Source: Atriophallophorus winterbourni (Eukaryota; Platyhelminthes; Trematoda; Plagiorchiida; Microphallidae). Taken from it: DNA of 64,000 bases. The notes beneath the pieces were generated by a model that ran no database searches, was not told the origin of the DNA, and saw only the letters and a list, made by a program, of their open reading frames with translations. Position 1 is the first letter of the stretch. Every line of letters begins with the position of its first letter. The DNA is taken from NCBI GenBank assembly GCA_013407085.1, contig JACCGJ010000281.1, positions 1 to 64,000 on the forward strand. The letters are read 5' to 3'. A program made the translations under genes and the position numbers. Below are positions 8,395 to 62,452 of the stretch, in pieces.

Positions 8395-11300
8395 TTCTAA
8401 GGTTGTCACGGCTGGGGCAGATTTCAATTCAAAAAAATACTCTAATAGCGCACGTCTTTTATAGCCTCTGACAACCAAGACCAGCTCTTGGCCTGCACGC
8501 GTCATCCTGTGTGACCCGGCTGAAATGCTTCTACCAACAGGAGAAAGGGTGAAAGCTGCTGACTGGCTCATCAAAACCAGCTTGCTTCGGCAGGTGGAGC
8601 TCTTAAGCCCATGTAGGCGGCTCACACACGGGATGGAAAACATTTTTCTCAAATAACCACGCCCTTGTGGCTACATCCAATCATGGAAAAGGCTTCAGGA
8701 GTCAACCTCGAGGAAAAATCCGGAGCCGGAGTCCAGTTAGACAGTCCGAAGTTATTTTCAACTTCTCCCTGACAACTCCTGCGACGGCATTGTTGTCCAA
8801 ATGTATCAGTCTAGATGTTCCTCTGGTTCCGGATGTGCCTTGGAGAATGAGCACTTGCTGAGTGGACAACAGCTAGTTCTCCACTTTGAACTGGCCTGGC
8901 GTACATCACAACGCACCAATGAAGAGGACATTCTATTCCGCTTCTAAGTATAATAACACGGGAAGCAGCATATGCCGGTTGAAAGATATGGCTAGACTAC
9001 CGTAGAGCTCAGCGCCTAATGCTGCTTCCGAGGGTGGGAGAGAAATTCAGGTCTCATTGGACCGCTACCGCCCGCCTCAAGCTGGACAGCCCTTAGTCTA
9101 TAAGGTGCTATCTCGCCACGGTCTGCTATCTTCATTGGGTACATGGGTATTAGAAATCAACCGACAAGCAGACAGTATTTTCCACACCAGCGAAACGAAT
9201 TACCAAACATAAAAGATCTGAAACTGGGAACCTGGAAAGGGTGGTCCATGCTTCCTGGATTTCATGACGACCTCTAGAATATCAGAGGCGTAAGAAAATC
9301 AACTGTGATTAACAATGAGCTCAAAAGGCTGAAATTCGACGTTGGTACTCTGCAAGAGACGCGATTACCACACACTGGCATGCTAACAGAAAGAGATTAC
9401 ACATTTTTGAAAGGAACTGGTTCTGATTAGCCTTGACTGCATGGAGTTGGCTTTACCGTGTGAGTCAGCCTAATAAAAGCAGCAGAACCAATCAGCAGCG
9501 GGAGCTAACGGATTTTGACTCTAAATCTGAAGTGCATTACTGGCACAATTACGTTGGTCAATGTTTATGCACTGACGCTCTCTGCGACGCCTGCTGAAAA
9601 ATACGCTTTTTATCAGTCCTCATAACCTGCCACAAACACGTGGCACAGGGTTATTTCAATGTCGGAGTTAGTGCAGAATACGAGTCTTGGCAAAATTATC
9701 TAGAAAGGTTCGGAGTAAGTATAATCAATGAGAATGGACAAAGCTTTTAAGAAATGTGCGCATAGTTCAGTCTTTTTGTCAGTAACACTTTCTTTCCAAC
9801 AAACAACAGCATAAATTCTCTTGGTAACATCCTCGTTCTAAGCTTTGGAATCAACTTGATCTTATTCTTGTTAGGCGCACGAATATAGGAAGCGTACTCC
9901 TCAACAGATCATATCAAGGCAGAAAATGCGACATTGATTATTCACTAGCCTGTGCAAAACTGATTTCACTGCACCAAATTTTCTTCTAAGCCAAGGATGG
10001 ACGTCACTCGCATGTGCGAAACTAATTTAGCTCAGCGATTTGTCAAAGCATTCACAGTAGAGTTCAACAAGACAACCCCACTCGAATCGCTAAAACGCTG
10101 CATATGCCGAGTCGCACTTTCCACTTACGGTCCGAAGAAAGCTCGAATCAACGACCGGTTCGAAACAAAGGCTTCTGAGATTACTGCCGTTTTGGAGGAG
10201 AAACGGTCAGCATTCTTGAAGTACAAAGGTATGCCAATAGATGAAAACTTACGACTACTTAGAGCAGCTAGAAATAAGGTCCAACAGACTGCAAAAGGAT
10301 ATGCAAATGACTATTAGACTGAAATTAGCCATAGTATCAAAAAGCTGCAGATACTGGAAATTTTCACGGTATGTATGATTGGATCAAGAGAGCCATTGGT
10401 CCAAACAAACTTAAAGCCCCTCCCATTAAGTCTGTATCTGGTAACTCGATTGTCGACAAAGCTCAACAGATGAAAAGACGGATAGAGTACTTCTCTTCTC
10501 TCTACTCTAGTGACAGTACGGTTTTGCCGCATGTACCTGAAAACGTTGAGCGTTTGCCAACCATTGAACATCTATATACTCCCCCTACTCTTAATGAGCT
10601 CAATAAGGCAATCAACCGCTTAGCGAATGGGAAGATCACCGGTTACGACGGAATTGCATCTGAGCTCATCAAATGTGTAGAGCAGCATTAATACAACCTT
10701 TTCATCATTTGCTTCTTCAGTGCTGGCAGGACGAGTGTGTCCCACAAGAGATGCGAGACACAAATATCATCACGCTATTTGATAATAAAAGAGATAGAGG
10801 CGACTGCAACAATTACAGAGTAATCTCCATTCTGAATGTTGTAGGCAAATTGTTTGCTTAAGTCTTACAGATCCGGTTACAGGTTTCAGCTTATATAATT
10901 AACTCCTTATCCCAATGTGGCTTCCGCAGGGGAAGATAAACCGTTGACATGATTTTATGCCTGAGACAACTTCAAGAAAATGTGTCGGGAAAAGCGTATG
11001 CATTATACGCTGTTTTTATTGATTTAGCAAAGGCAATCGACTACGTCAGCATGGAGGGTCTTTTCAAAATGATTGATCTGATAGGCTGCCCCCCGAAGCT
11101 GCTCAAACTCGTTATTTCGTTCAACTCAGGCATGAAAGGCTCAGTCCATTTTAACGGTTTCAGTTCAGAAGCCTTTGAATTTATCCGGGGCGTCAAACAA
11201 GCGTGTGTTCTTGCTTGCATGCTTTTCGGCATTTTCTTTGCTCCGCTCCTGTAGCACGCATTTAACAGGAGAACAGATTTCATTTACCTACGCACGCGAA

Positions 11301-12343
11301 GAGATGGCATGCTTTTCAATCTGAAACGATAGAGAGCACAAACCAAGGTACATGATGTGCTAATCCGTGACCTGCTGTATGTCGACGATGCAACCTTCAT
11401 TGATCACTCCAGTCGCTAATGGACTGTTTTTTGTCGGCATGCAAATACTTTGAACAAACAATCAGCACAAGCACGACCAAAGTATTTTTCAAGGGATTGC
11501 ATCGCCTCCAATCATCACTGTTGGAAACTGTCAGCTTGAATATGTACATCATTTCACATATCTCGTTTCAACCTTTTCGGATAACCTCTCGCTAGATACG
11601 AAGATTTATAAGCGGATTCTCGGAGCAGCTGTCATTTTGTCCCGATTGAACTCTCGTGTTTCGGGTAACCGCAAGTTGACTGTAAAGACAAAATGAAGGT
11701 AAACAGCGCGTCTGTAATAAATGCTTTACTATACGGCAGTGAAACCTGGAGCACCCACGCAAGACACGAACGGAAGCTGATTGCTTTCCATCTACGAAGC
11801 ATCCATCGTACCATGAATATGTTGTGGATGGACAAATGGACCAATTCTGAAGTGCTTTCAAAAGCTGGTCTGCAGAGCATGTTCACCTTACTACGACAGC
11901 GCTGCCTGCGGTGGCTTGGTAACGTCTACAGAATCGAAAATGGTCGTATTCCGAAAGGTCTACTCTATGATGAGTTGCAACCAGGAAGTCGACCATTGGA
12001 CAGTGCGCAATTGCAGTACAAAGACGTTTGCAAAATGAGATATGAAAGCTCTTTGTATTGACACCGTAAGTTGGGATGAACTCGCTCTCGACCGCTTACA
12101 TTGGAGGCATTGTGTAAAGCATACAGCTCTTGGCTGCTGAACGCAGATCACGCCGCCGATCTGCAACTGACACCCAACGATCGAGTTATGCCTATCGTTG
12201 AAAATGTTTCGGGAGAGTTTGTTCCTCCCAAATCGGACTGTTTAGTTATTCGAAAAGCTGTAGTAAATGAAAATTCATGCGATTGTGTTGTGTATCCTCC
12301 GTCGACACCGACCGAAGAAGGCCAACTGCAACAACAATAAACA
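8395..12343 (+). mobile_element. Full-length but decayed RTE-like LINE
   Basis: A non-coding 5' region of about 800 bases (8395-9200) precedes an AP-endonuclease (about 9226-9980, with LQETRLPHTGML near 9350). A linker frame follows at 9997-10317, then RT at 10371-12060. RT motifs include NGKITGYDGIASELIK, FIDLAKAIDYV, GVKQACVLA and the palm LLYVDDATFI near 11375. The 3' end is a CAA-type repeat (GCAACAACAATAAAC). The reading frame switches repeatedly and contains many stops. The imperfect 26-bp flanking duplication supports these ends. An element of the same family, 5'-truncated but better preserved, lies at 28640-30356. Confidence 0.85.
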
Positions 12344-12369
12344 ATTTTCCTTAATATCAATTTGCTTAA
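12344..12369 (+). repeat. Right target-site duplication of RTE element
   Basis: This is the partner of 8368-8394 (ATTTTCCTTAATATCA, then TTTGCTTA). See that entry. Confidence 0.6.
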
Positions 12370-12572
12370 TACATTGTCATTATTCTAGTACCTTATCGTG
12401 TACGCTGGCATTATAATTTTTTAGCGATGATTGCTATATGATTACAAAATTTATAGGTCATATTTTCCTCGTTAATAGTAAAGTATATTTCAGTTTGAAT
12501 TATGATAGAAAGATTATTGAAATAAAATTAATTATCAAAGTAAAGTGTTGCTCACATCCCCATCCCTTACAC

Positions 12573-12612
12573 ACCACTACCGGTTTCAGGCTGTTTGCCA
12601 TCGTCAGGTGGA
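12573..12612 (-). ncRNA. Hammerhead motif, 241-bp repeat unit 1
   Basis: On the minus strand, CTGACGA (12607-12601) and GAAA flank a stem II of three pairs (GGC/GCC) whose first position is a U-U mismatch. Stem I is CCAC/GTGG, four pairs. Stem III is the palindrome ACCGGT with a GTA cleavage triplet. The core is complete, but stem II is weakened, so activity is uncertain. Confidence 0.75.
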
Positions 12613-12813
12613 GACAGTAAGATCAGATTCAGTGAGCCTTGAAACAGTGGATTAATGGTAAACAAAGTTAAACTTGTATGCCACTGTTATATAGGGTTCT
12701 TACAAAGAACAACGATGTTCAAACACTGAATCACAAAGTGATTCTTGGTCAAGCACTCGAGGCGCTTATGGGTAACCAAAGTAAAGTGTTGCTCACATCT
12801 CCACCCCTTACAC

Positions 12814-12853
12814 ACCACTACCGGTTTCAGGCTGTTTGCCATCGTCAGGTGGA
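12814..12853 (-). ncRNA. Hammerhead motif, 241-bp repeat unit 2
   Basis: Through the core this is the same sequence as unit 1 (core strand at 12848-12842, GAAAC at 12828-12824), including the U-U mismatch at the base of stem II. Confidence 0.75.
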
Positions 12854-13053
12854 GACAGTAAGATCAGGTTCAGTGAGCCTTGAAACAGTGGATTAATGGT
12901 AAACAAAGTTAAACTTGTATGCCACTGTTATATAGGGTTCTTACAAAGAACCACGATGTTCAAACACTGAATCACAAAGTGATTCTTGGTCAAGCACTCG
13001 AAGCGCTTATGGGTAACCAAAGTAAAGTGTTGCTCACATCCCCATCCCTTACA

Positions 13054-13095
13054 CATTACTACCGGTTTCGTGCTGTTTGCACTCATCAGGTAGGG
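13054..13095 (-). ncRNA. Hammerhead ribozyme with canonical core, repeat unit 3
   Basis: The minus strand reads CTGATGA (13089-13083), stem II GTGC/GCAC closing a 5-base loop, then GAAA and the palindromic ACCGGT. The cleavage triplet is GTA, with cleavage predicted after the base at 13060. All invariant core bases are canonical and stem II is fully paired. Stem I is short here (CTAC/GTAA, three pairs). Confidence 0.85.
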
Positions 13096-13120
13096 ACAGT
13101 AAGATCAGGATGGGTTTAAG

Positions 13121-14849
13121 CCCATTAACATGTGTTTGGACACCTGTGATTGAACAGGGTTGGTCGTACCAGCCTTATCCAAAAGAGTTGATTATTTTGC
13201 ACGACTTATGCTCTCGATCAGCGAGTCGAAGTTGTTTATCACGCTGAACATTTTCTTCAATGATTTTAATGTCATTACTCTTCTGGTCGTAAGCAATTTT
13301 CCTTTCGACTAGATGTAGTATGCAGTTGTTTGCTTGAATTTATAAAAGCAGGAATAATTACTCTGAGATCTTGCTGTTAAGCGGATGTGCACTTGGTGGC
13401 CATTGAGTCCGAGCAGTTACATAAAAAACTTTGGTTATAAGTGTTAGTACTTGATGGTGATAGCACTCTAGATCTGCGCTACTAAACATTGCGGTTCGTG
13501 TATCACATTTAATGAATTCGGCTCCGAATTTTGTAAATATACACACTTATACACTTTGCATTCGTCTTGTTTTCTTTCATTTACCAAAATTCTTAAATAT
13601 TCGCGTTGAAATTATCATTTCCGTCGATAGCATTGGGTAGTTAAACGGTTAGGTCATTATTTATTTGAAAAAAATTCGATTACCGTATAACAATCACGAA
13701 TTTGCGGTCTGAGTTTTGAATAAATATCCACAAGCACAAAATAAGAACTCGGAAAGCAGGAACACGAAGGTGTACGGAATAACGCAAAGCCGTTGCTGGT
13801 CATTGTGTACAATATTTATGTGGTTAAAGTACTGCTGGTTGGCTGGATTACCATAACCGCCCAAGTGACATGTAGTGGCGGCAAGTGGAAGATGAACGTA
13901 TCCCAGCGCGAGCGCACAGTTCGACAAACCAACGTAGGAATAGTGATAATGATAAGCCTTCGACAGCATTTCACTCTTGTTGTGCAAAATGAAATAGAAC
14001 GACAAGATTGACGCAAAATACAAGTCCCTTTACACTGATTTCTGCTAGTTTTACACGCATAGATTTTACGTATGGATTCGAATTAGCTGCCTTCATTGGC
14101 TGGGAATGACTGATAAATTCAAAAAGCAGCGAGATGTAATTCAATTGCCGAATGCTAATCAAGTGACAAATCTAAGCCAAGGAATAAGAAAATAAATAAT
14201 AGAAAACCTTTATTTGAATTTAGTTGTATTATCACACCTGCGCTGACTTCAAAGTTTAGGCTAGGTTTAAGGTTTTTCCATTGTTTCAGAACATGCGGAT
14301 CCTGATGCGTGACTGCACTTACGAATAAAAATAGCACGAGACCAGACCTGAGGTGTATATTGGAAAAGCATGTAAACATTAATTTTATCAAGGTCAAATT
14401 TTGTTTTCAACGATATGTTTCTTAACTTCTAAAAAATTCCTATTGGTCAAAATTCAAAACGGCTTTTTAATACATAGAACACCGCTAGGCAGTCCTCAGC
14501 CGATCGGCTGCAGATGCACACCTACATCCTGTATCTGGAAGCTTTACACAATACTTCCGAAGCGGTCTAGCACAAGGTTTTTGCAAATCAAAGGGTCACA
14601 ATAAAAAGCTTTCATATCTCAGTTGAAATAGTCTTTGTACCGCATTTCCGGTCTGTCCAAAGGTCGAAAACCTGATTTCAACCCACCATTGAGTAAATCT
14701 TTTCGAACATGCCCACCTAGCGCGCCTGTACCATTGTGATATGGTGAATATCACTTCAGCGCATTATGTACTTTGTCCATCCACAATAGAGAGCATTCGC
14801 TCCATTAACAAGTTGTCTTCGTGAAAATCCCAATGCTATTGTAGATAAG
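13121..14849. other. Non-coding stretch upstream of kinesin exon
   Basis: No gene is recognised. It contains a decayed hammerhead-family copy (listed separately). Short frames on both strands at 13.7-14.4 kb show no family resemblance. Upstream kinesin exons might be hidden here, but none could be supported. Confidence 0.4.
14288..14375 (+). repeat. Decayed copy of the dispersed hammerhead repeat
   Basis: It starts with the same CATGCGGATCCTGAT leader as the intact copy at 28.5 kb and keeps AAAATAGCACGA where stem II and its loop should be. Both core strands are mutated, so it should be inactive. Confidence 0.55.
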
Positions 14850-40339
<25,490 letters not shown>

Positions 40340-46031: not shown

Positions 46032-46837
46032 CACTCCCAGTTGCCCAGTATGCAACTACCGATGAAAGGTGGAACAAAATAGCAGGGATTATGCGAGCCG
46101 CCGCAATAACAGCCTGTGAGACTGCACAACCAACCCAAAAGTCCCACTGGATTTCACATCGCTCTATAGAAATTCTTCACCAGCGACGCGAAATACCTCA
46201 TGGTCCTGGACACAACACAGAGCGTAGACGCGTGAGGAATGAACTTAAACGGAGCCTAAGACTAGACAGAGAAAGGTGGTGGCTAAATAAGGTCGAAGAA
46301 ATGGAAATAGCAAATAATGCGGGTAACGTGCGAAAACTCTTCCAACTTATTCGATCGACTGGGCCCACGAAACAAGGAGTGAGTGAGATTATAGCGGAAT
46401 TAGACGGTACTCTTATCACTAATAAGAATCGCCGCCTGTCACGCTGGGCCGAACATTTTGAAGAACAATTCAGCTGGTCGCCTGCAACAGAATCATTCCC
46501 TCACTTGAGGCAGTGTGATCCTTGGCCTGTTAGCGTAGATCCCCCTAATGATTTAGAAATTAAAGCCTGTATCGAATCTATGAAACGATTCAAAGCTGCT
46601 GGCCCCGATGACATACCGCCTGTTTTGTTCAAAAAAGGTGGCCAAGTCCTAATCAGCACATTAGGATATCTCCTCCGTGAAATGTGGATGTCAGAATCCG
46701 TCCCTCCGAGTTGGGGCGAATCAGTTATCATACCTATATTTAAAAAAGGTGTGCGAAGCTCATGCTCTAATCACCGTGGGATAAGTCTCACTCCCATCAT
46801 TACGAGATTATTAGCGTCCATATGTCTCGAAGATTAA
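46032..46837 (+). CDS. RTE RT N-terminal segment
   Basis: It is open from the SINE junction to a stop at 46837. It encodes DERWNKIAGIMRAAAITACE, then RLDRERWWLNKVEEME, SMKRFKAAGPDDIPPVLFKK and IIPIFKKGVRSSCSNHRGIS, the RT fingers. A frameshift near 46820 leads into the RT palm frame. Confidence 0.8.
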
Positions 46838-48117
46838 CATCGCATAGAGAACCACAGATCCGTGAGCAGCAAACTGGCTTCCGGCCTGGCAGAGGCTGTG
46901 TCGACCACATTTTTACTCTTCGACGGATATTAGAACTGCGGCACACCTATCGACAGCCGACAATAGCCATCTTTTTAGACTTCAAAGGAGCATTTGATTC
47001 AGTCGATCGAAATGTCCTGTTTAAGACCTTGCTGTGCAAAGGCGTTCCGCATAAGTATGTCAACATACTACGCGCACTTTATGCTCATACATCCGGATAC
47101 GTTAAGGTTTACAACGAACTTTCTCCCAAATTCAACACTACAAGTGGCGTCCGACAAGGATGTCCGATTTCTCCGTTTTTGTTCAATTTCGTAATTGATG
47201 CTATCATGGAATTATGCAGCGACGGTGCTCCAGCCTTCGGAGTTCACATAATGCCAGGCGTCAAGCTTCTCGACTTGGATTATGCTGATGACATAGTTCT
47301 GCTTTTCGACTCATACACAGATGCACAGGCGATACTGAACAAGCTATCTAGTATTGTGCCCGCATTTGGAATGCGTTTTGCGCCCTCTAAGTGCAGTGTT
47401 CTTCTGCAGGACATCGACTTATCGAACAAGGCTTTATTACTTGACAATCAGGCGCTTGAAATTGTGGATCGTTTTAAGTATCTCGGTAGTTGTATCAATA
47501 ATTCTGCATCGTTAGATTACGAGGTCTCGGCACGCATTTCTAAAGCGACCGTAGCATTCCGCAACCTAGGTCACCTCTGGCGTCAGAAAGGACTGTCTCT
47601 GCTACTCAAGGGTAGAGTCTATAAAGCGACAGTTCGGGCTGTGTTACTGTATGGGTGCGAAACCTGGACCTTACGTAAAGAAAACATTCAGCGTCTCCAA
47701 GTATTTGACAACCGGTGTCTCCGCAGCATTCTAGGAGTTAGCTGTTACAATCGTATGCGCACCGATGCTCTCCGAAATAAGTTGTTTGGTAGTAATGTCG
47801 ATATAGAGAAGCAGATTAACCTGCATAGGCTACGCTGGTTGGGTCACGTTTTACGGATGCCGGACCACCGACTTCCGAAACAGATTCTTTTTGCGACGCC
47901 ACATCCTGATTGGCGTAAATCTAGGGGTGGCCAAACCGTCACATGGCATAGGCAGCTAAAAATTCTTACTAGTAACCTTTCCAAAATAGGCGCAGCGCGT
48001 CTTCCAGGCTGGTGTCCCCGCGATCATATATCGCAATGGTTAGTTACGCTTCAGGATATGTCCCGAAACCGTGTTCAATGGCGGACTTGCACTAAGCATC
48101 TTGGAGTGTTTGCATAA
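46822..48117 (+). CDS. RTE reverse transcriptase palm, thumb and C-terminus, open
   Basis: 431 codons without interruption. Motifs are QQTGFRPGRGCVDHIFTLRR, IFLDFKGAFDSVDR, SGVRQGCPISPFLFNFV and the catalytic LDYADDIVLL, then FKYLGSCINNSASLDYEVSA and LLYGCETWTLRKENIQRLQV. LHRLRWLGHVLRMPDHRLPK is the usual RTE C-terminal block. All catalytic aspartates are present. Confidence 0.9.
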   Translation: MSRRLTSHREPQIREQQTGFRPGRGCVDHIFTLRRILELRHTYRQPTIAIFLDFKGAFDSVDRNVLFKTLLCKGVPHKYVNILRALYAHTSGYVKVYNELSPKFNTTSGVRQGCPISPFLFNFVIDAIMELCSDGAPAFGVHIMPGVKLLDLDYADDIVLLFDSYTDAQAILNKLSSIVPAFGMRFAPSKCSVLLQDIDLSNKALLLDNQALEIVDRFKYLGSCINNSASLDYEVSARISKATVAFRNLGHLWRQKGLSLLLKGRVYKATVRAVLLYGCETWTLRKENIQRLQVFDNRCLRSILGVSCYNRMRTDALRNKLFGSNVDIEKQINLHRLRWLGHVLRMPDHRLPKQILFATPHPDWRKSRGGQTVTWHRQLKILTSNLSKIGAARLPGWCPRDHISQWLVTLQDMSRNRVQWRTCTKHLGVFA

Positions 48118-50622: not shown

Positions 50623-53600
50623 TATATAGTTAGATAGAATGATATATATATAGGCATGATCCCGGAGCTTTGTAAAGTGTCACATAGCCTAGCCGTTTTT
50701 CGTTATCGCTTTTTAATTGCTTCTCTGTAACCACATTTACTCTAACCGGTTTTCGCCTTTCCTTTGCTACCTCACGCTCGTATATATGAAATCACAAGTC
50801 TGATCCAGGCAAAGTGCCGCACATTCATAAACTGCACATTGTCTAAGATACTGTCAGGTTGCCTAGGCCTAGACGCGCACATACGTTTGGATAGTGCTGA
50901 CAATTTATCATAAGCAATCACTGCTTTGCTGGACTACGTCATCGTGTTAGCTAGTTAGGTCCGATTCGTTGGCTCAGGAAAATGCGCGTCATTGGTTTAC
51001 GGCAGCTTGGTAAGTTTACCCTTGATATCTAGAGTGGTTTTTGACAAGAGGGCCAAGTTTGAAGGTGTAGTCGATTGTGAAAATTAGATAATGTGCATGA
51101 ACTTTGTAGGCGTATTTCTCAACACTTTTTCACACTTAACATGATAATCTCAGTAATACGATGAGTTGCCTACTCTGAAGAAGGACAATCCTATTGGCAA
51201 TCTAGTTTTATGCGGGACGCCTTATACCGACTTAATTTCAGTGAGTCCGCACTGCTACACGAGAAATTCGGACAAAATGGGAATCTATTCAATCTATATA
51301 CTGCCACATTTCGATCTCTTAAATCTAAAACTTCTTTAACTCCTTGCGGATCGTCAGTCTAAACTATTCGTGAAATTGTATGAGGGCTATATAATTGATT
51401 GTAGTCAATGAAATGCTACAAAGTTGTATTTTCTCTTATTCCAAGACAATACTTTTGTTTAAACAAAAGCTTCCTATCATCACAACCACGTCAAACAATT
51501 TCGTAGGCACATAATTTCGCTTGTTTGTAGGTATTGGACTATTTTACTATCGACTATCTCAGGCGAGACTGCAGCTTCCCGACGCATCCGAACACCAATC
51601 CGGAGCACTCTGCCAGGCACAACATCTTAGGCGGCGATGTTTACGACACGTTGACTTACAACGACTCAAAAAGAATGCAAGCGTTTTCACAAGTTCGATC
51701 GGTGCTCTTCTGCTAGGGGCGATCGTTCCTTGTTTCGCAATCAGATGGGCAGGAACTAACCCCAGATCGTTGTTTCGAAGAGATACTGGCAGCGTCCAAC
51801 TTTGTGACGTCATCCGACAACGAGATACCGGATGAGGCGTTATACGGTAGAACGGGCTATCTATGCGCTCTGTTGATTCTTGAATCGGCTGGATTCAGCA
51901 TAAACAGTAGTTTGTTCACTCAAGTACGTTTGCCAATCAAATGTAATTGCTGGTCGTTATCAGACGGCAATCCGTCTTTTTTCTCATAAAAGAAAAACTG
52001 TTGAGCAACCTTACACCGGTATCAAATACCGGGTGCTAATTACCGTATAACCATGACACGTTAAAAATCCTAAAAATGTTGGGAAAAGTAGGATCTAAAA
52101 AGCCACTAAACCTATAAAAGATTATGTGCAGACACACTCGTTTGAGGTGCCTATTCTTCGAATCAAGCAAGCGTTGTGAAAGAGTTGAACGTCTTCTGCA
52201 TAACGGCTTCCTCTTGGCTTTGCAAATTAATACCTTACCCTCTTATTTTTTTACGCTTTGTCACGTAAACCTGTGTTATTTGATTGAACTGGTTTGTACT
52301 GTGTACTTTTAAAGGTTAGTTCTTTCCTGTTGCAAAAATTTGTTGACCAATGATATTCTCAAAAGTAAAAGACATTAATGAATACAATGAATTTTTTATG
52401 CAATTGGTTAAAGTAGATTCATGTGAATTTTCGCCAAGCCAAGAGTAAGGGTCAGAACATGGGATGTCATAAGATAGCACTGTATTCATCGCGTCTAATT
52501 GGCCTTACCACTGAACAATCTAGAAATGTCAATTCACGTAGACTATGCCAATATCAGTTAGCCTATTTGCCAAGCAACGCACTTATCCGAGTTAATCCCT
52601 AAACGTGAATGCGGCGAAGGTTACTTGGCACTGCGGTTTACTTGTGCTTGACAAAAATCTATTACAATATGCTAAAGTTAATCACTTAAAAAATTGGGTT
52701 TAATGTTAAGCTTTATTTATTGTGACCCTTATCAAGAACGTTTCCCAAAACTGCTCTAAGTGATTGCGTACACGATGGGCGACAAACATTTTCAATCACC
52801 TGAAAGTGGCATCTTTCTGTTCGCCTTATTAAGACAGTGGATGAGCGAGACCGAAATCAAGAGATATGTTTTTGATTTTAAGTTATTTTTTCTGTGCAGG
52901 TGATGTATGTATGAAATCGCAAGTCTGATCGAGTCAAAGTGCCGCACAACGAAAGACTGCTTGCGTGCAAAGATACTAACAACTTTGTGCTAATTCGAGG
53001 ATAAATTCTCATTTGCAAATTGAAATTTAGCTTTTATGTGGGGACTAATCTAAGTCTTACAGTTGGTGCAATGTAGCACTAGTAACTGTTTGAAATATTA
53101 TCGCAGCATTCCAATAACAGCATGATTGTAGTTTTTTTCTTTTAAGTCAGATTTTTACTAATAAGTAGTATATGACGTTCGAAAAGCAGACGGAAGCACA
53201 CTAGCGGTTTTCGCGTTATTGCCGCTCATCAGGGTAGGCGTTCCGTGACCTGACATTCGAACGCCGTGCGGACTTGTGCTAACCCATTATCTTTGGAATT
53301 CGCGCATAAATCTTCATTTGTCAAATTGAAATTTAGCTTTAATGTGGGGCTAATCTAATCCCACCGTTGGTGCAATGTAGCACCGGCGTTCAGGTCACGG
53401 ATACGCATACCTGATGAGCGGCAATAACCGCGAAACCGCTCGTGTGCTTCCGTCCTGCTTTTCGAACGTCATATACTACTTATTAATACAAATCTGACTT
53501 AAAACACAAACTACAATCATGCTGTTATTGGAATGCTGCAAAAATATTCCAAACAGCTACCGGTGCTACATTGTACCAACTGTGGGACTTTCATTAATTC

Positions 53601-56600
53601 CCACATACAAGCTAAATTTCAATTTGCAAATGAAAATTTATCCTCGAATTCGCAAATACTGACAACTTTCCCAGACCTAAATAGCCGTGTTCCAACAAAC
53701 AGCTCATTCCTGTTGACCAAACATTGCAAACGATGGCACTCAAGCTCTTTTACAAGTGTGGTGGAGCGTTATGTAGAAATCTTTGATTGATAAATAAATG
53801 TTAGTAATCTTATTTACATGGTTAAGTGTACACGTGGCATATGCCTATGCGTTACCGAAACGACTAGGAAACTTCATATCGACCGCGAAGAATCTGGAAC
53901 CTCACTAAAAGCAACCATAAATGTGATTATGAATTTTATGCCCCTTCTTCAATGCTATCCTAGCACGTCTTGCATACAAAACAATATACACTACTTGCAT
54001 TCAAGCACCAAGTGCAACTACAAATCATGTGTTGCAACTTTTTGTATCTGGTATGTATTCGAGCAAAACTTGTGTGGCACGTATTTGTACAAAATCAATA
54101 TTCATAACTTACAAAGGACATTTTGCTCTTGTTATCTTTAATCTCATTCACTGCTTATCTACATGTGAATGACTGAATTATCCAATATATAGTTAAACAT
54201 GCAATTGATTTTTTGTAGTTTATCCGTCACATCGCGCCGTACAGTACACATGGTTGTTAGAGTAACGTTTAATCAATGTTTAGGAATCTTTTATTTCATC
54301 AGCAAGACGTTACTCAGTCGGCACCAACTCCTTCCATGGTGTTACTCGATTTTTAGTTTTTAAAACGTTTCGCTGTTGTCCTGCATCGTTCATCGTGATG
54401 ACACATTTGCTTAAATGCCATATTATTCTTTATCTTTTTCGCTAACACTTCGTTGTAGGTAGTTGAGGCAATTATTAAATCCGGGTTGAGAACAGCCAAA
54501 CGCTATCAAAATGATGGCTTGTACGCTGAACTCATGCAGCGTTCTTCTCACTCCAAACTACCCATGCCCCCTTTGATGTTTGAATGGCATGGCAAAGCTT
54601 ACTTGGGTGGTGCCCATGGCTTCGCCGGGATTTTACTCACACTGCTCAAGGTATGTATGTTCACCCGAAGATACCTTAACTTTACTCTGTCATATCGGGT
54701 CATTTGGGAATGCATCTTGCATTTGTAACGATTTGCCTCAATACATGAATGTGCTGTTTGTCATACTTTTGATAGCTGACTATCTAATGGTGTGCCGTTC
54801 GCTTCGTGTATCCCTAATGCTACCTCGCAATGTGGATGTATCGCCTCCAATCGTCACTGTTGAAAACTGTCAGCTTGAACCAGTACATCATTTCCGTTAT
54901 CTTGGTTCAATCATTGCGGATAACCTCTCGCTAGACACGGAGATTGGTAAGTGGATTGGCAGGGCAGCTGTCATTTTGTCCCGATTGAACTCTCGTGTTT
55001 GAAGTAACCACAAGTTGACTGTAAAGACAAAGATGATGGTATACATGGTGCGTACTAAATGTTTTAATGTACGGCAGTTAAACCTGGACTACTTGCGCAA
55101 GATACGAACGTATGCTGAATGCTTTCCATCTACGAAGCATCCGTCGTATCTTGAACATATCATGGATGGACAGAGTGACTAATGCTGAAGTGCTTTCAAA
55201 AGCTGGTCTACAGAGCATGTTCACCCTACTACGACAGCGCCGCCTGCGGTGGCTTGGCCACGTCTACAGAATGGAGAATGGTCGTATTCCGAAAGATCTA
55301 CTCTATGGTGAGTTGCAATCAGAAAGTCGACCATTGGGCACTTGGGGTACATAATCTTCCCACCCCTTACAATAATACTTTCTCGGTGTTGACAGTTTGG
55401 CCTCTTACACACGAAGTGATCTCTTTTGGCGCACTGTCCCCGTTTAACGAATAATGGTCTGCAATTGACTCTAGCTTTACTAAACTAGTGCTAAACAAAT
55501 ATTTTCATTTCAACCGAATTCTCAATTTTTTCAGGTTCATCATCGCCATCCGGAAGTGTTTTCTCCCAAAGCGGTTCAAGATTTGATTATGCCAACCGTG
55601 CGTTGGATGGGAGAATTGCAACTGAATTCGGGAAATTGGCCTTCCAGTTTGGGGAACAGTGTTGTTCGCGATGTTTTGGTCCACTGGTGTCATGGAGCGA
55701 CTGGAGTCGTGCCACTCATGCTGGCTGCTTATGAGGTTTGCGTGGCACTATCAACTATCCTACATCAGTTACCATTTCCCTGTGCTCTAAAATGCCGTAA
55801 AAACGTATTATGGTCTTCATGTCTCGCACAAGTCTCTAGTTGACTATCTTACACTCTGTACGAATCACGAATTTTGGTTAGTGCTTGTATTTCTTCTCTG
55901 ACGGCAGTCTGTCACTCATCAGACTAACTGGTTATTTTACCACGTATCCGATTGCCTAATTATAGATTGCGTTAAGATCCATTCTTGTTTCATCCGTTTT
56001 GCCATCCGGAGTGTAAAGAATGATGCTGCAAGCTCATTTCAACTAAGCATCTGCATGATTCACTTTCTTTTTACGTGTTTGCTTGTCTGCATTTCCTCCT
56101 TCATTTTGCTTGGCACTGTCTGGCTCCAGCCCTTAGCTTCATGATAACGATGATCATGATGCAACCTTGAGACTTGCATCATCTCAGCACACACGCGGTC
56201 TATCAGACTGCGCAGAACTTTGTCTAATTCCAAGTCTATGCTCACATGCATACATACGTACATACATACATACATACATACATACATACATACATACATA
56301 CATACATACATCCCTACTTCGGTGTAGGCAACCACCCTACTTCGGTGTAGGCAACCGGGTAGTATCATGCCTACGGTTCAACGATGCCGATGACAACGCT
56401 TTGGTACCCCCCTTCTCGCTTTGTAACATCTCATTGTTTAGTGTTAAACGCACTTATCTGTATCAGATTGTGCAAATATACGCAATAATAATCTAATACA
56501 TACATGCATACTATACATACATACGTACTCATACATACACACATACATACATACATACATACATACATACATACATACATACATACATACATACATACAT

Positions 56601-62105: not shown

Positions 62106-62363
62106 GGGTGATAGTCAGGACAGGGAACATGATTAAGTAATAGTCAACCCACCACCACTTATTTGACCTTACCGCTAAACAACCTATAGTACGCCTACAG
62201 TGTGTCACGTCTCGTGGGAATGACCAGGATCAGTGGTCGATTTTCCTCCTAGCGTGTATCCACGTCAATCTGATAATAGTGAAAACGGTCAAGGTCAGTT
62301 GACACAACGGCCCACATGCGTAAAAGTACATAACTAACGGGGCTAAGCAAGGTAATACTTGAA

Positions 62364-62452
62364 TGCCACTGTTGCATAGGGTTCGTACAACGAACCACGA
62401 TGTTCAAACACAGAATCACATAGTGATTCGTGGTCCAGCACTCGGGGCTAAG
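62364..62452 (+). repeat. Fragment of the 241-bp repeat without its hammerhead
   Basis: GAATGCCACTGTTGCATAGGG, GAACCACGATGTTCAAACAC and ATCACATAGTGATTCGTGG match 12675-12765. The small palindromes are kept with compensated changes. Confidence 0.8.

What the first reader, a model, noticed from the sequence alone, without database searches (positions are those of the whole stretch)
12538..13120. Exact 241-bp tandem array with a hammerhead ribozyme in every unit
Seen directly: GTTTC landmarks at 12583, 12824 and 13065 are 241 apart, and each unit's minus strand has a CUGANGA - stem II - GAAA core followed by a palindromic ACCGGU stem III and a GUA cleavage triplet. Established: Schistosoma SINE-like hammerheads and animal retrozymes. 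Inference: minus-strand transcripts would self-cleave into 241-nt monomers that could circularise. The third unit has a fully canonical core, while units 1-2 share a U-U mismatch in stem II.
Basis: partly seen in the sequence, partly recalled or inferred. Interest (0 to 1): 0.88.

Follow-up and report, generated by a model that had tools for sequence, protein, structure and literature searches.

The report
Hammerhead retrozyme inserted like Penelope element
A short repeat carrying a self-cutting RNA motif sits in a fluke genome as one of many dispersed copies, and the ends of the copies suggest that they were pasted in by the machinery of Penelope-type jumping genes.

Summary
The array is real: 12536-13109, period 241 bp, 2.4 copies, a type I hammerhead (HHR) on the minus strand of each. 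The kind is known: animal non-LTR retrozymes. The array is only one arm of a larger insertion: an inverted 76-bp piece of a sister family (B) follows at 13110-13185, and an imperfect 8-bp repeat (7 of 8) flanks both.

In 101 non-duplicate insertions from this genome (115 fetched loci plus the window stretch), 3' ends cluster at two positions, about 42 and about 153 nt after the cleavage site. All 32 two-arm insertions are head-to-head; 26 pair one end of each kind. Exact edge repeats of 8 bp or more flank 19 of 104 insertions, against 1 expected. This matches published Penelope-like elements (PLEs), which extend both DNA strands from internal RNA sites. Best reading: a non-autonomous retrozyme placed by PLE-type, both-strand target-primed reverse transcription.

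Units of one arm are often closer to units elsewhere than to each other, so multimeric rather than single-circle templates are likely in many cases. Self-cleavage, circular RNA and the PLE partner were not shown; the PLE search did not complete.

The parts
12528..12535 (.). left edge repeat TTAATTAT, presumed target duplication
   Evidence: 7 of 8 positions like 13188-13195; 511 of 20000 random pairs do as well
12536..13109 (-). zone 1 arm: 2.4 family A units, sense 3' end at 12536 (phase 42)
12578..12607 (-). hammerhead core, unit 1 (U-U at base of stem II), from CTGA to the predicted cleavage site
12819..12848 (-). hammerhead core, unit 2 (U-U)
13060..13089 (-). hammerhead core of the third copy (canonical G-C); B-like up to about GAAACCGGT, A-like after it
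13110..13185 (+). second arm, inverted: family B body, phase 53 to 129, 91% identity
13188..13195 (.). right edge repeat TTGATTAT
34323..34422 (-). solo family A arm ending in zone 1, flanked by 13-bp exact repeats (34310-34322 and 34423-34435)
62348..62442 (-). solo family A arm ending in zone 2, flanked by 10-bp exact repeats (62338-62347 and 62443-62452)
28515..28628 (+). solo family B arm (phase 171 to 47) with canonical hammerhead at 28550-28579
   Evidence: 19.0 bits to Hammerhead_HH9, E 0.029
52987..53655 (.). family C: palindromic head-to-head insertion, hammerheads at 53232 (-) and 53411 (+), flanked by repeats alike at 13 of 14 positions (52973-52986, 53656-53669)

Best explanation
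The locus is an insertion of a non-autonomous, non-coding retrotransposon of the animal retrozyme kind in what is most likely a trematode genome. Transcripts of retrozyme arrays are taken by the reverse transcriptase/endonuclease of a Penelope-like element. The enzyme cuts both target strands about 8-15 bp apart, and each free DNA end primes reverse transcription inside the RNA at one of two preferred sites (zone 1, about 42 nt after the hammerhead cleavage site; zone 2, about 153 nt). The two cDNAs are joined head-to-head, often through a few shared bases, leaving both 3' ends outward and a target duplication. Here the minus arm began at zone 1 and copied 2.4 A units; the plus arm copied family B sequence and ends at phase 129. 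SHOWN: clustering of ends, head-to-head rule, pairing of zones, edge repeats. INFERRED: transcription, a PLE as the enzyme, priming on both strands, multimeric templates. UNTESTED: hammerhead cleavage and circles.
For: 3' ends: 17 of 36 A arms and 39 of 97 B arms fall in one 12-nt window; the largest values in 500 uniform draws were 9 and 16. 32 of 32 non-duplicate two-arm insertions are head-to-head; 26 of 32 have one zone 1 and one zone 2 end, and 0 of 20000 shuffles of the same ends reach 26. Of the 13 among loci fetched after the idea was noted, 11 fit windows 22-63 and 111-170, which I fixed after seeing them; 8 fit the ranges noted beforehand, 40-50 and 125-168 (my count). Exact edge repeats of 8 bp or more: 19 of 104 insertions against 1.02 expected from mismatched pairs; two-arm 11 of 32 against 0.31. 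Flanking 20 nt are 66.6% A+T against 61.8% at 120-220 bp, P 2e-5. Published PLEs: inverted head-to-head pLTR, 8-10 bp duplications, optional 31-bp tail at one 3' end (PMC3846280, passages); an Anolis PLE protein extends both strands from two internal RNA sites in an AC-rich stem-loop, and hammerhead mutants insert as well (PMC11167929, parts 1-2 of 4). Family C in this window has the same two-arm plan.
Against: No PLE was seen: the PF01541 search of this genome did not complete, and recalled PLE patterns match nothing in 355 kb of held sequence. Single arms: 45 of 69 end in zone 1, 12 in zone 2, 12 elsewhere, so the sites are preferred, not absolute. 6 of 32 two-arm insertions break the pairing rule. 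85 of 104 insertions show no exact edge repeat of 8 bp. In family C both arms end at the same site. The window's own edge repeat is imperfect (2.6% by chance). The two sites lie about 110 nt apart, against a 30-40 nt tail in PLEs. In the predicted circular fold of B both zones lie at small hairpins, but in A only zone 2 does.
Confidence: 0.66

Rival explanations
1. Published retrozyme model: the hammerheads cut, monomers are closed into circles, and a reverse transcriptase runs round one circle several times, giving tandem units.
For: Arms run across the cleavage site without a break. L040 has two identical units inside exact edge repeats; L009 roughly fits; the window's units 1-2 (0.971 to each other, 0.979 and 0.967 to the best elsewhere) fit about equally. 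Circles are shown in coral, mussel and axolotl (PMC7229834).
Against: The closest unit is in the same arm for only 42 of 213 A and 11 of 70 B units (6.7 and 2.6 expected at random); L033, L041 and L045, all with exact edge repeats, have units 90-93% alike that match other loci better.
Confidence: 0.3
2. Ordinary satellite DNA: tandem units spread by unequal exchange, with hammerheads as passengers and no transposition.
For: Long arrays exist (for example 17 full units in L026), and subfamilies are mixed within arrays.
Against: Many short dispersed copies, edge repeats far above chance, two fixed 3' ends, and head-to-head arms in 32 of 32. Does not exclude satellite growth after insertion.
Confidence: 0.06
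3. Insertion by a LINE, with the inverted arm made by LINE-type twin priming at a variable internal site.
For: LINEs are present; LINE twin priming gives the same head-to-head geometry (recalled).
Against: No poly(A) or simple tail in the listed ends; the second site is not variable but clusters near phase 153 in most two-arm cases. Only the window's LINE was compared.
Confidence: 0.14
4. The inverted arm arises by self-priming: the first cDNA snaps back and copies itself.
For: Proposed for rotifer PLEs with palindromic junctions (PMC3846280); family C is a long palindrome.
Against: The inner ends of the two arms lie within 15 nt in 3 of 32 cases, 4.2 expected at random, and the outer end of the second arm is not random.
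Confidence: 0.06

Closest known systems
Animal non-LTR retrozymes with type I hammerheads (Cervera and de la Pena 2020, PMC7229834, parts 1-4 of 6 read)
   Same: Short tandem repeats (170-400 bp; here 241 and about 235), low G+C, one type I HHR per unit, from few to many units. Retrozyme-like repeats in platyhelminths are already mentioned there. Axolotl HHR_Amex2 has the same U-U at the base of stem II; Amex1 has a palindromic stem III.
   Different: Two preferred 3' ends and head-to-head arms are not described in the parts read (supplement not seen). RNA and circles not shown here. Units within an arm are often unlike.
Penelope-like elements (PMC3846280 passages; PMC11167929 parts 1-2 of 4)
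   Same: Head-to-head inverted arms, duplications of about 8-10 bp, partial tandems, hammerhead near the start site, internal start of reverse transcription, A+T-rich targets.
   Different: No RT or GIY-YIG coding capacity; the two end positions are about 110 nt apart, not 30-40.
Schistosome hammerhead satellites and W-elements (PMC8490949 passages; Ferbeyre 1998 known only as cited)
   Same: Trematode, repeated, hammerhead-bearing, proposed to be mobile, one possible target duplication.
   Different: No sequence comparison was made here.
Newt satellite hammerheads (as described in PMC7229834)
   Same: Weak palindromic stem III, working best as dimers.
   Different: Different repeat size and host; dimer action is only inferred here.

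Membership tests
Animal non-LTR retrozyme | type I hammerhead in each unit | tested here: met
   cores in all three copies; Rfam below gathering score: 18.6 bits in the window, up to 32.9 in relatives
Animal non-LTR retrozyme | tandem units of 170-400 bp, non-coding, low G+C | tested here: met
   period 241; no stop-free frame of 120 aa over the element; G+C 0.40 in the 2-kb bin
Animal non-LTR retrozyme | target duplication, when present, longer than 4 bp | tested here: met
   8-15 bp in 19 of 104 insertions
Animal non-LTR retrozyme | no LTR, primer binding site or polypurine tract | not tested
   no LTR-like ends were seen, but PBS and PPT were not searched
Animal non-LTR retrozyme | self-cleavage | not testable with these tools
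   needs in vitro transcription
Animal non-LTR retrozyme | linear and circular monomer RNA in tissue | not testable with these tools
   no RNA-seq on hand
Animal non-LTR retrozyme | tandem units copied from one circle | tested here: inconclusive
   most arms have unlike units, L040 has identical ones
Penelope-like element | ORF with RT and GIY-YIG endonuclease | tested here: not met
   no frame of 120 aa over the element; no PLE pattern in held sequence
Penelope-like element | head-to-head inverted arms with short target duplication | tested here: met
   32 of 32 two-arm insertions; duplications above chance
Penelope-like element | 3' ends at two internal start sites | tested here: met
   the spacing differs from that of PLEs
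LINE-dependent SINE | 3' tail shared with a LINE, or poly(A)/simple tail | tested here: inconclusive
   no tail in the listed ends; only one LINE family was compared
Schistosome hammerhead satellite | sequence homology to those satellites | not tested
   no such sequence was fetched

The most novel reading that the evidence does not exclude
Animal retrozymes are inserted by a two-site, two-strand reaction: the reverse transcriptase starts at two different places of the retrozyme RNA, one per target strand, usually on multimeric transcripts whose hammerheads did not cut. Hammerhead cleavage and circle formation would then be a by-product or a brake rather than the route of transposition.
Probability: 0.4. 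Interest if true: 0.82.

Novelty: new member of a known kind. Interest (0 to 1): 0.6.

Why it matters
Which enzyme moves animal retrozymes, and what their hammerheads are for, are open; PLEs were named in print as strong or likely candidates (PMC7229834; PMC7761336). Mapping the ends of many copies in one genome gives a specific signature shared with PLEs and predicts where reverse transcription should start. It also gives a test of the circle model that needs only genome sequence: compare the units within one insertion.

Tried and rejected
Array tied to a LINE: the LINE copy ends at 12348, 188 bp before the array; pieces of the array near the second LINE copy lie 470 bp or more beyond its end, and the B copy at 28515-28628 lies upstream of it; dropped. 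HHR under purifying selection: in the 39 loci found by a body query, core stretches are 93.5-95% like the consensus, near the rest once subfamily sites are set aside; no signal. Exchange of monomers cut at the cleavage site: the rate of near-perfect matches elsewhere is 0.33-0.34 for cuts near phase 0 against 0.25-0.32 for other cuts; boundaries of near-identical blocks are enriched in about phases 168-48; linkage is low over the whole stretch 167-33 but rests on 3-5 site pairs; inconclusive. [quoted passage not shown] an RT stop or a transcript start, not resolved. Circular folds are moderately more stable than shuffles, z -1.6 (A) and -2.5 (B). PLE patterns, recalled: no match. A first BLAST script printed no hits and was rewritten.

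Full report
What was checked. The window is G000:C258:1-64000 of an unnamed 537-Mb assembly in 15840 contigs. For the reverse transcriptase frame at 46771-48117, the best hit that bears an animal's name is from Dicrocoelium dendriticum (63% identity, third in the list); Schistosoma, Trichobilharzia and Paragonimus follow among the best 120 listed, beside unnamed metagenome proteins and a few with bacterial names (8000 candidates scored). The host is most likely a trematode; no call names the species.

The repeat is at 12536-13109, period 241 bp, 2.4 copies. Units 1 and 2 differ at 6 of 241 positions; the third copy is about 92 bp long and homology ends at 13109. On the minus strand each copy has CTGANGA, a 13-nt stem-loop II, GAAAC and CGGTA, giving the palindrome ACCGGU as stem III and GUA at the predicted cleavage site. 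Units 1-2 have U-U at the base of stem II, the third copy G-C. Rfam lists nothing at gathering score in the window, 18.6 bits for the third copy, 19.0 bits for a family B copy at 28545-28584, and 25.1 to 32.9 bits for the family B copies in four other loci given (gathering score 34).

The family. The 483-bp query gave 136 matches with 39 of 4771 candidates scored, so copy number is a loose lower bound. Two related families appear: A (241 bp, GUA) and B (about 235 bp, GUC, canonical stem II), alignable over the whole unit. Among HHRs passing a core-and-stem pattern, A-type pair 10.1-11.1 is U-U in 84, C-A in 72 and other in 7; B-type is G-C in 76 and other in 3. U-U and C-A are two standing forms, not damage in one copy. 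Axolotl HHR_Amex2 has the same U-U, cuts weakly as a monomer and better as a dimer (PMC7229834). That A cuts poorly as a monomer is inferred from this likeness.

The insertion is larger than the array. Directly behind the third copy lies, inverted, a 76-bp piece of family B (13110-13185, phase 53 to 129). Outside both arms are TTAATTAT (12528-12535) and TTGATTAT (13188-13195), alike at 7 of 8; 511 of 20000 random pairs do as well, so this pair alone proves little. The third copy is B-like up to about GAAACCGGT and A-like after it, a chimera at or next to the cleavage site.

Where insertions end. I analysed 37 loci from the A search and 78 from the two B searches plus the window stretch, with one script. 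Of 115 insertions with at least 40 nt of flank on both sides, 14 were dropped as duplicates by flank likeness, leaving 101; clusters nearer to an edge were left out. Sense 3' ends cluster: 17 of 36 A arms and 39 of 97 B arms in one 12-nt window, against at most 9 and 16 in 500 uniform draws. The main cluster is about 40-48 nt after the cleavage site (zone 1), a second at about 149-160 (zone 2). Single-arm insertions: 45 of 69 end in zone 1, 12 in zone 2, 12 elsewhere.

Two-arm insertions. 32 of the 101 have two arms; all 32 are head-to-head with 3' ends outward (P 5e-10 against equal odds), and 26 of 32 combine one zone 1 and one zone 2 end; of the other six, five have a zone 1 end with an end outside both zones and one has two zone 1 ends; 0 of 20000 shuffles of the same ends reach 26. 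The idea was noted before the last 40 loci were fetched. Snap-back copying is not supported: the inner ends lie within 15 nt in 3 of 32, 4.2 expected. At the joint 22 of 32 show 2 or more bases of overlap and 9 show a gap of 1-19 nt, suggesting joining by microhomology in many; BLAST overshoot inflates this somewhat and no control was run.

Target duplications. For 104 insertions (the 101 plus three solo copies of the window), exact shared words of 8 bp or more at the two edges occur in 19, against 1.02 expected from mismatched pairs; in two-arm insertions 11 of 32 against 0.31; lengths 8 to 15. Two are in this window: 34323-34422 (zone 1 end, 13-bp repeat) and 62348-62442 (zone 2 end, 10-bp repeat). 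A third hammerhead family, C, sits at 52987-53655 as a head-to-head palindrome with hammerheads at 53232 (-) and 53411 (+), flanked by repeats alike at 13 of 14 positions (10 of 20000 random pairs do as well). In C both arms end at the same site, so the two-site rule is not universal.

What this resembles. A Penelope insert in a rotifer has an adjacent inverted pLTR, a 9-bp duplication and an optional 31-bp tail at one 3' end; head-to-head is called the most frequent arrangement (PMC3846280, passages). The purified Anolis PLE protein cuts and extends both strands and starts inside the RNA, in an AC-rich stem-loop, at two nearby sites that match the genomic tail; hammerhead mutants do not change insertion (PMC11167929, parts 1-2 of 4). 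The retrozyme ends show the same plan with wider spacing. In the predicted circular fold of B both zones lie at small hairpins (31-36/43-48, and 136-140/146-150 inside an 8-bp stem); in A zone 2 does (142-146/153-157) but zone 1 is in a longer stem. Published work names PLEs as candidate partners of animal retrozymes from shared hammerheads, tandem copies and co-occurrence (PMC7229834 parts 1-4 of 6; passages of PMC7761336, PMC11722881 and PMC8969392). In the literature searches I saw no account of head-to-head arms or two preferred 3' ends in retrozymes; I read only the parts and passages named, the rest as listings, and no supplements, and most subscription papers are not in that library.

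The template. Arms cross the cleavage site without a break, so the template was circular or uncut there. If one circle were copied round and round, the units of an arm should begin identical. The nearest unit is in the same arm for 42 of 213 A units and 11 of 70 B units; random expectation is 6.7 and 2.6. Of the five arms with at least two full units and exact edge repeats of 8 bp or more, L033, L041 and L045 have units 90-93% alike that match other loci better; L040 (identical units) and roughly L009 fit a circle. The window's own two units fit either (0.971 within, 0.979 and 0.967 elsewhere). Multimeric transcripts of mixed arrays explain the first group best; later gene conversion, and the choice of loci by likeness to the window, weaken the argument.

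What is missing. No PLE was seen: the GIY-YIG (PF01541) search was sent 29 times and never answered, and recalled PLE patterns find nothing in 355 kb of held sequence. No RNA evidence was available. End positions carry a few nt of uncertainty. All counts come from one genome and from copies ranked by similarity.

Verdict. A real, new member of a known kind (animal non-LTR retrozyme). The added value is the insertion signature, which turns the suggestion that PLEs move retrozymes into a specific, testable claim and questions the single-circle route for many copies in this genome.

Noticed in passing
window 52987-53655: Third hammerhead family (C): palindromic two-arm insertion with edge repeats alike at 13 of 14 positions; both arms end at the same site.
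   Followed up: partly
window 5265 (-), 27138 (-), 62100 (-): Hammerhead-like motifs with GAAACGT followed by TACC or GACC (very short stem III), possibly PLE-type minimal hammerheads; the genome search for the first did not complete.
   Followed up: no
window 10641-12348 and 28640-30366: Two copies of one non-LTR retrotransposon, 83% alike; a family B hammerhead copy (28515-28628) ends 11 bp upstream of the second.
   Followed up: partly
L013:1695-1749: Sub-threshold twister-P1 ribozyme match (32 bits, E 7e-4; gathering score 67.2).
   Followed up: no
family A hammerheads, many loci: Pair 10.1-11.1 is U-U (84) or C-A (72) in 156 of 163 scanned: two non-Watson-Crick states that change together; U-A is seen twice.
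   Followed up: partly
insertion edges, all loci: T-rich at positions 10-14 outward from the 3' ends, perhaps a cut-site preference at the far side of the duplication.
   Followed up: no
single arms of the set: 12 of 29 start at phase 161-180, giving short elements of about 100-130 bp in many cases; cause unknown.
   Followed up: partly
window 36110-36496: Kinesin motor domain exon (PF00225, E 2.8e-17).
   Followed up: no
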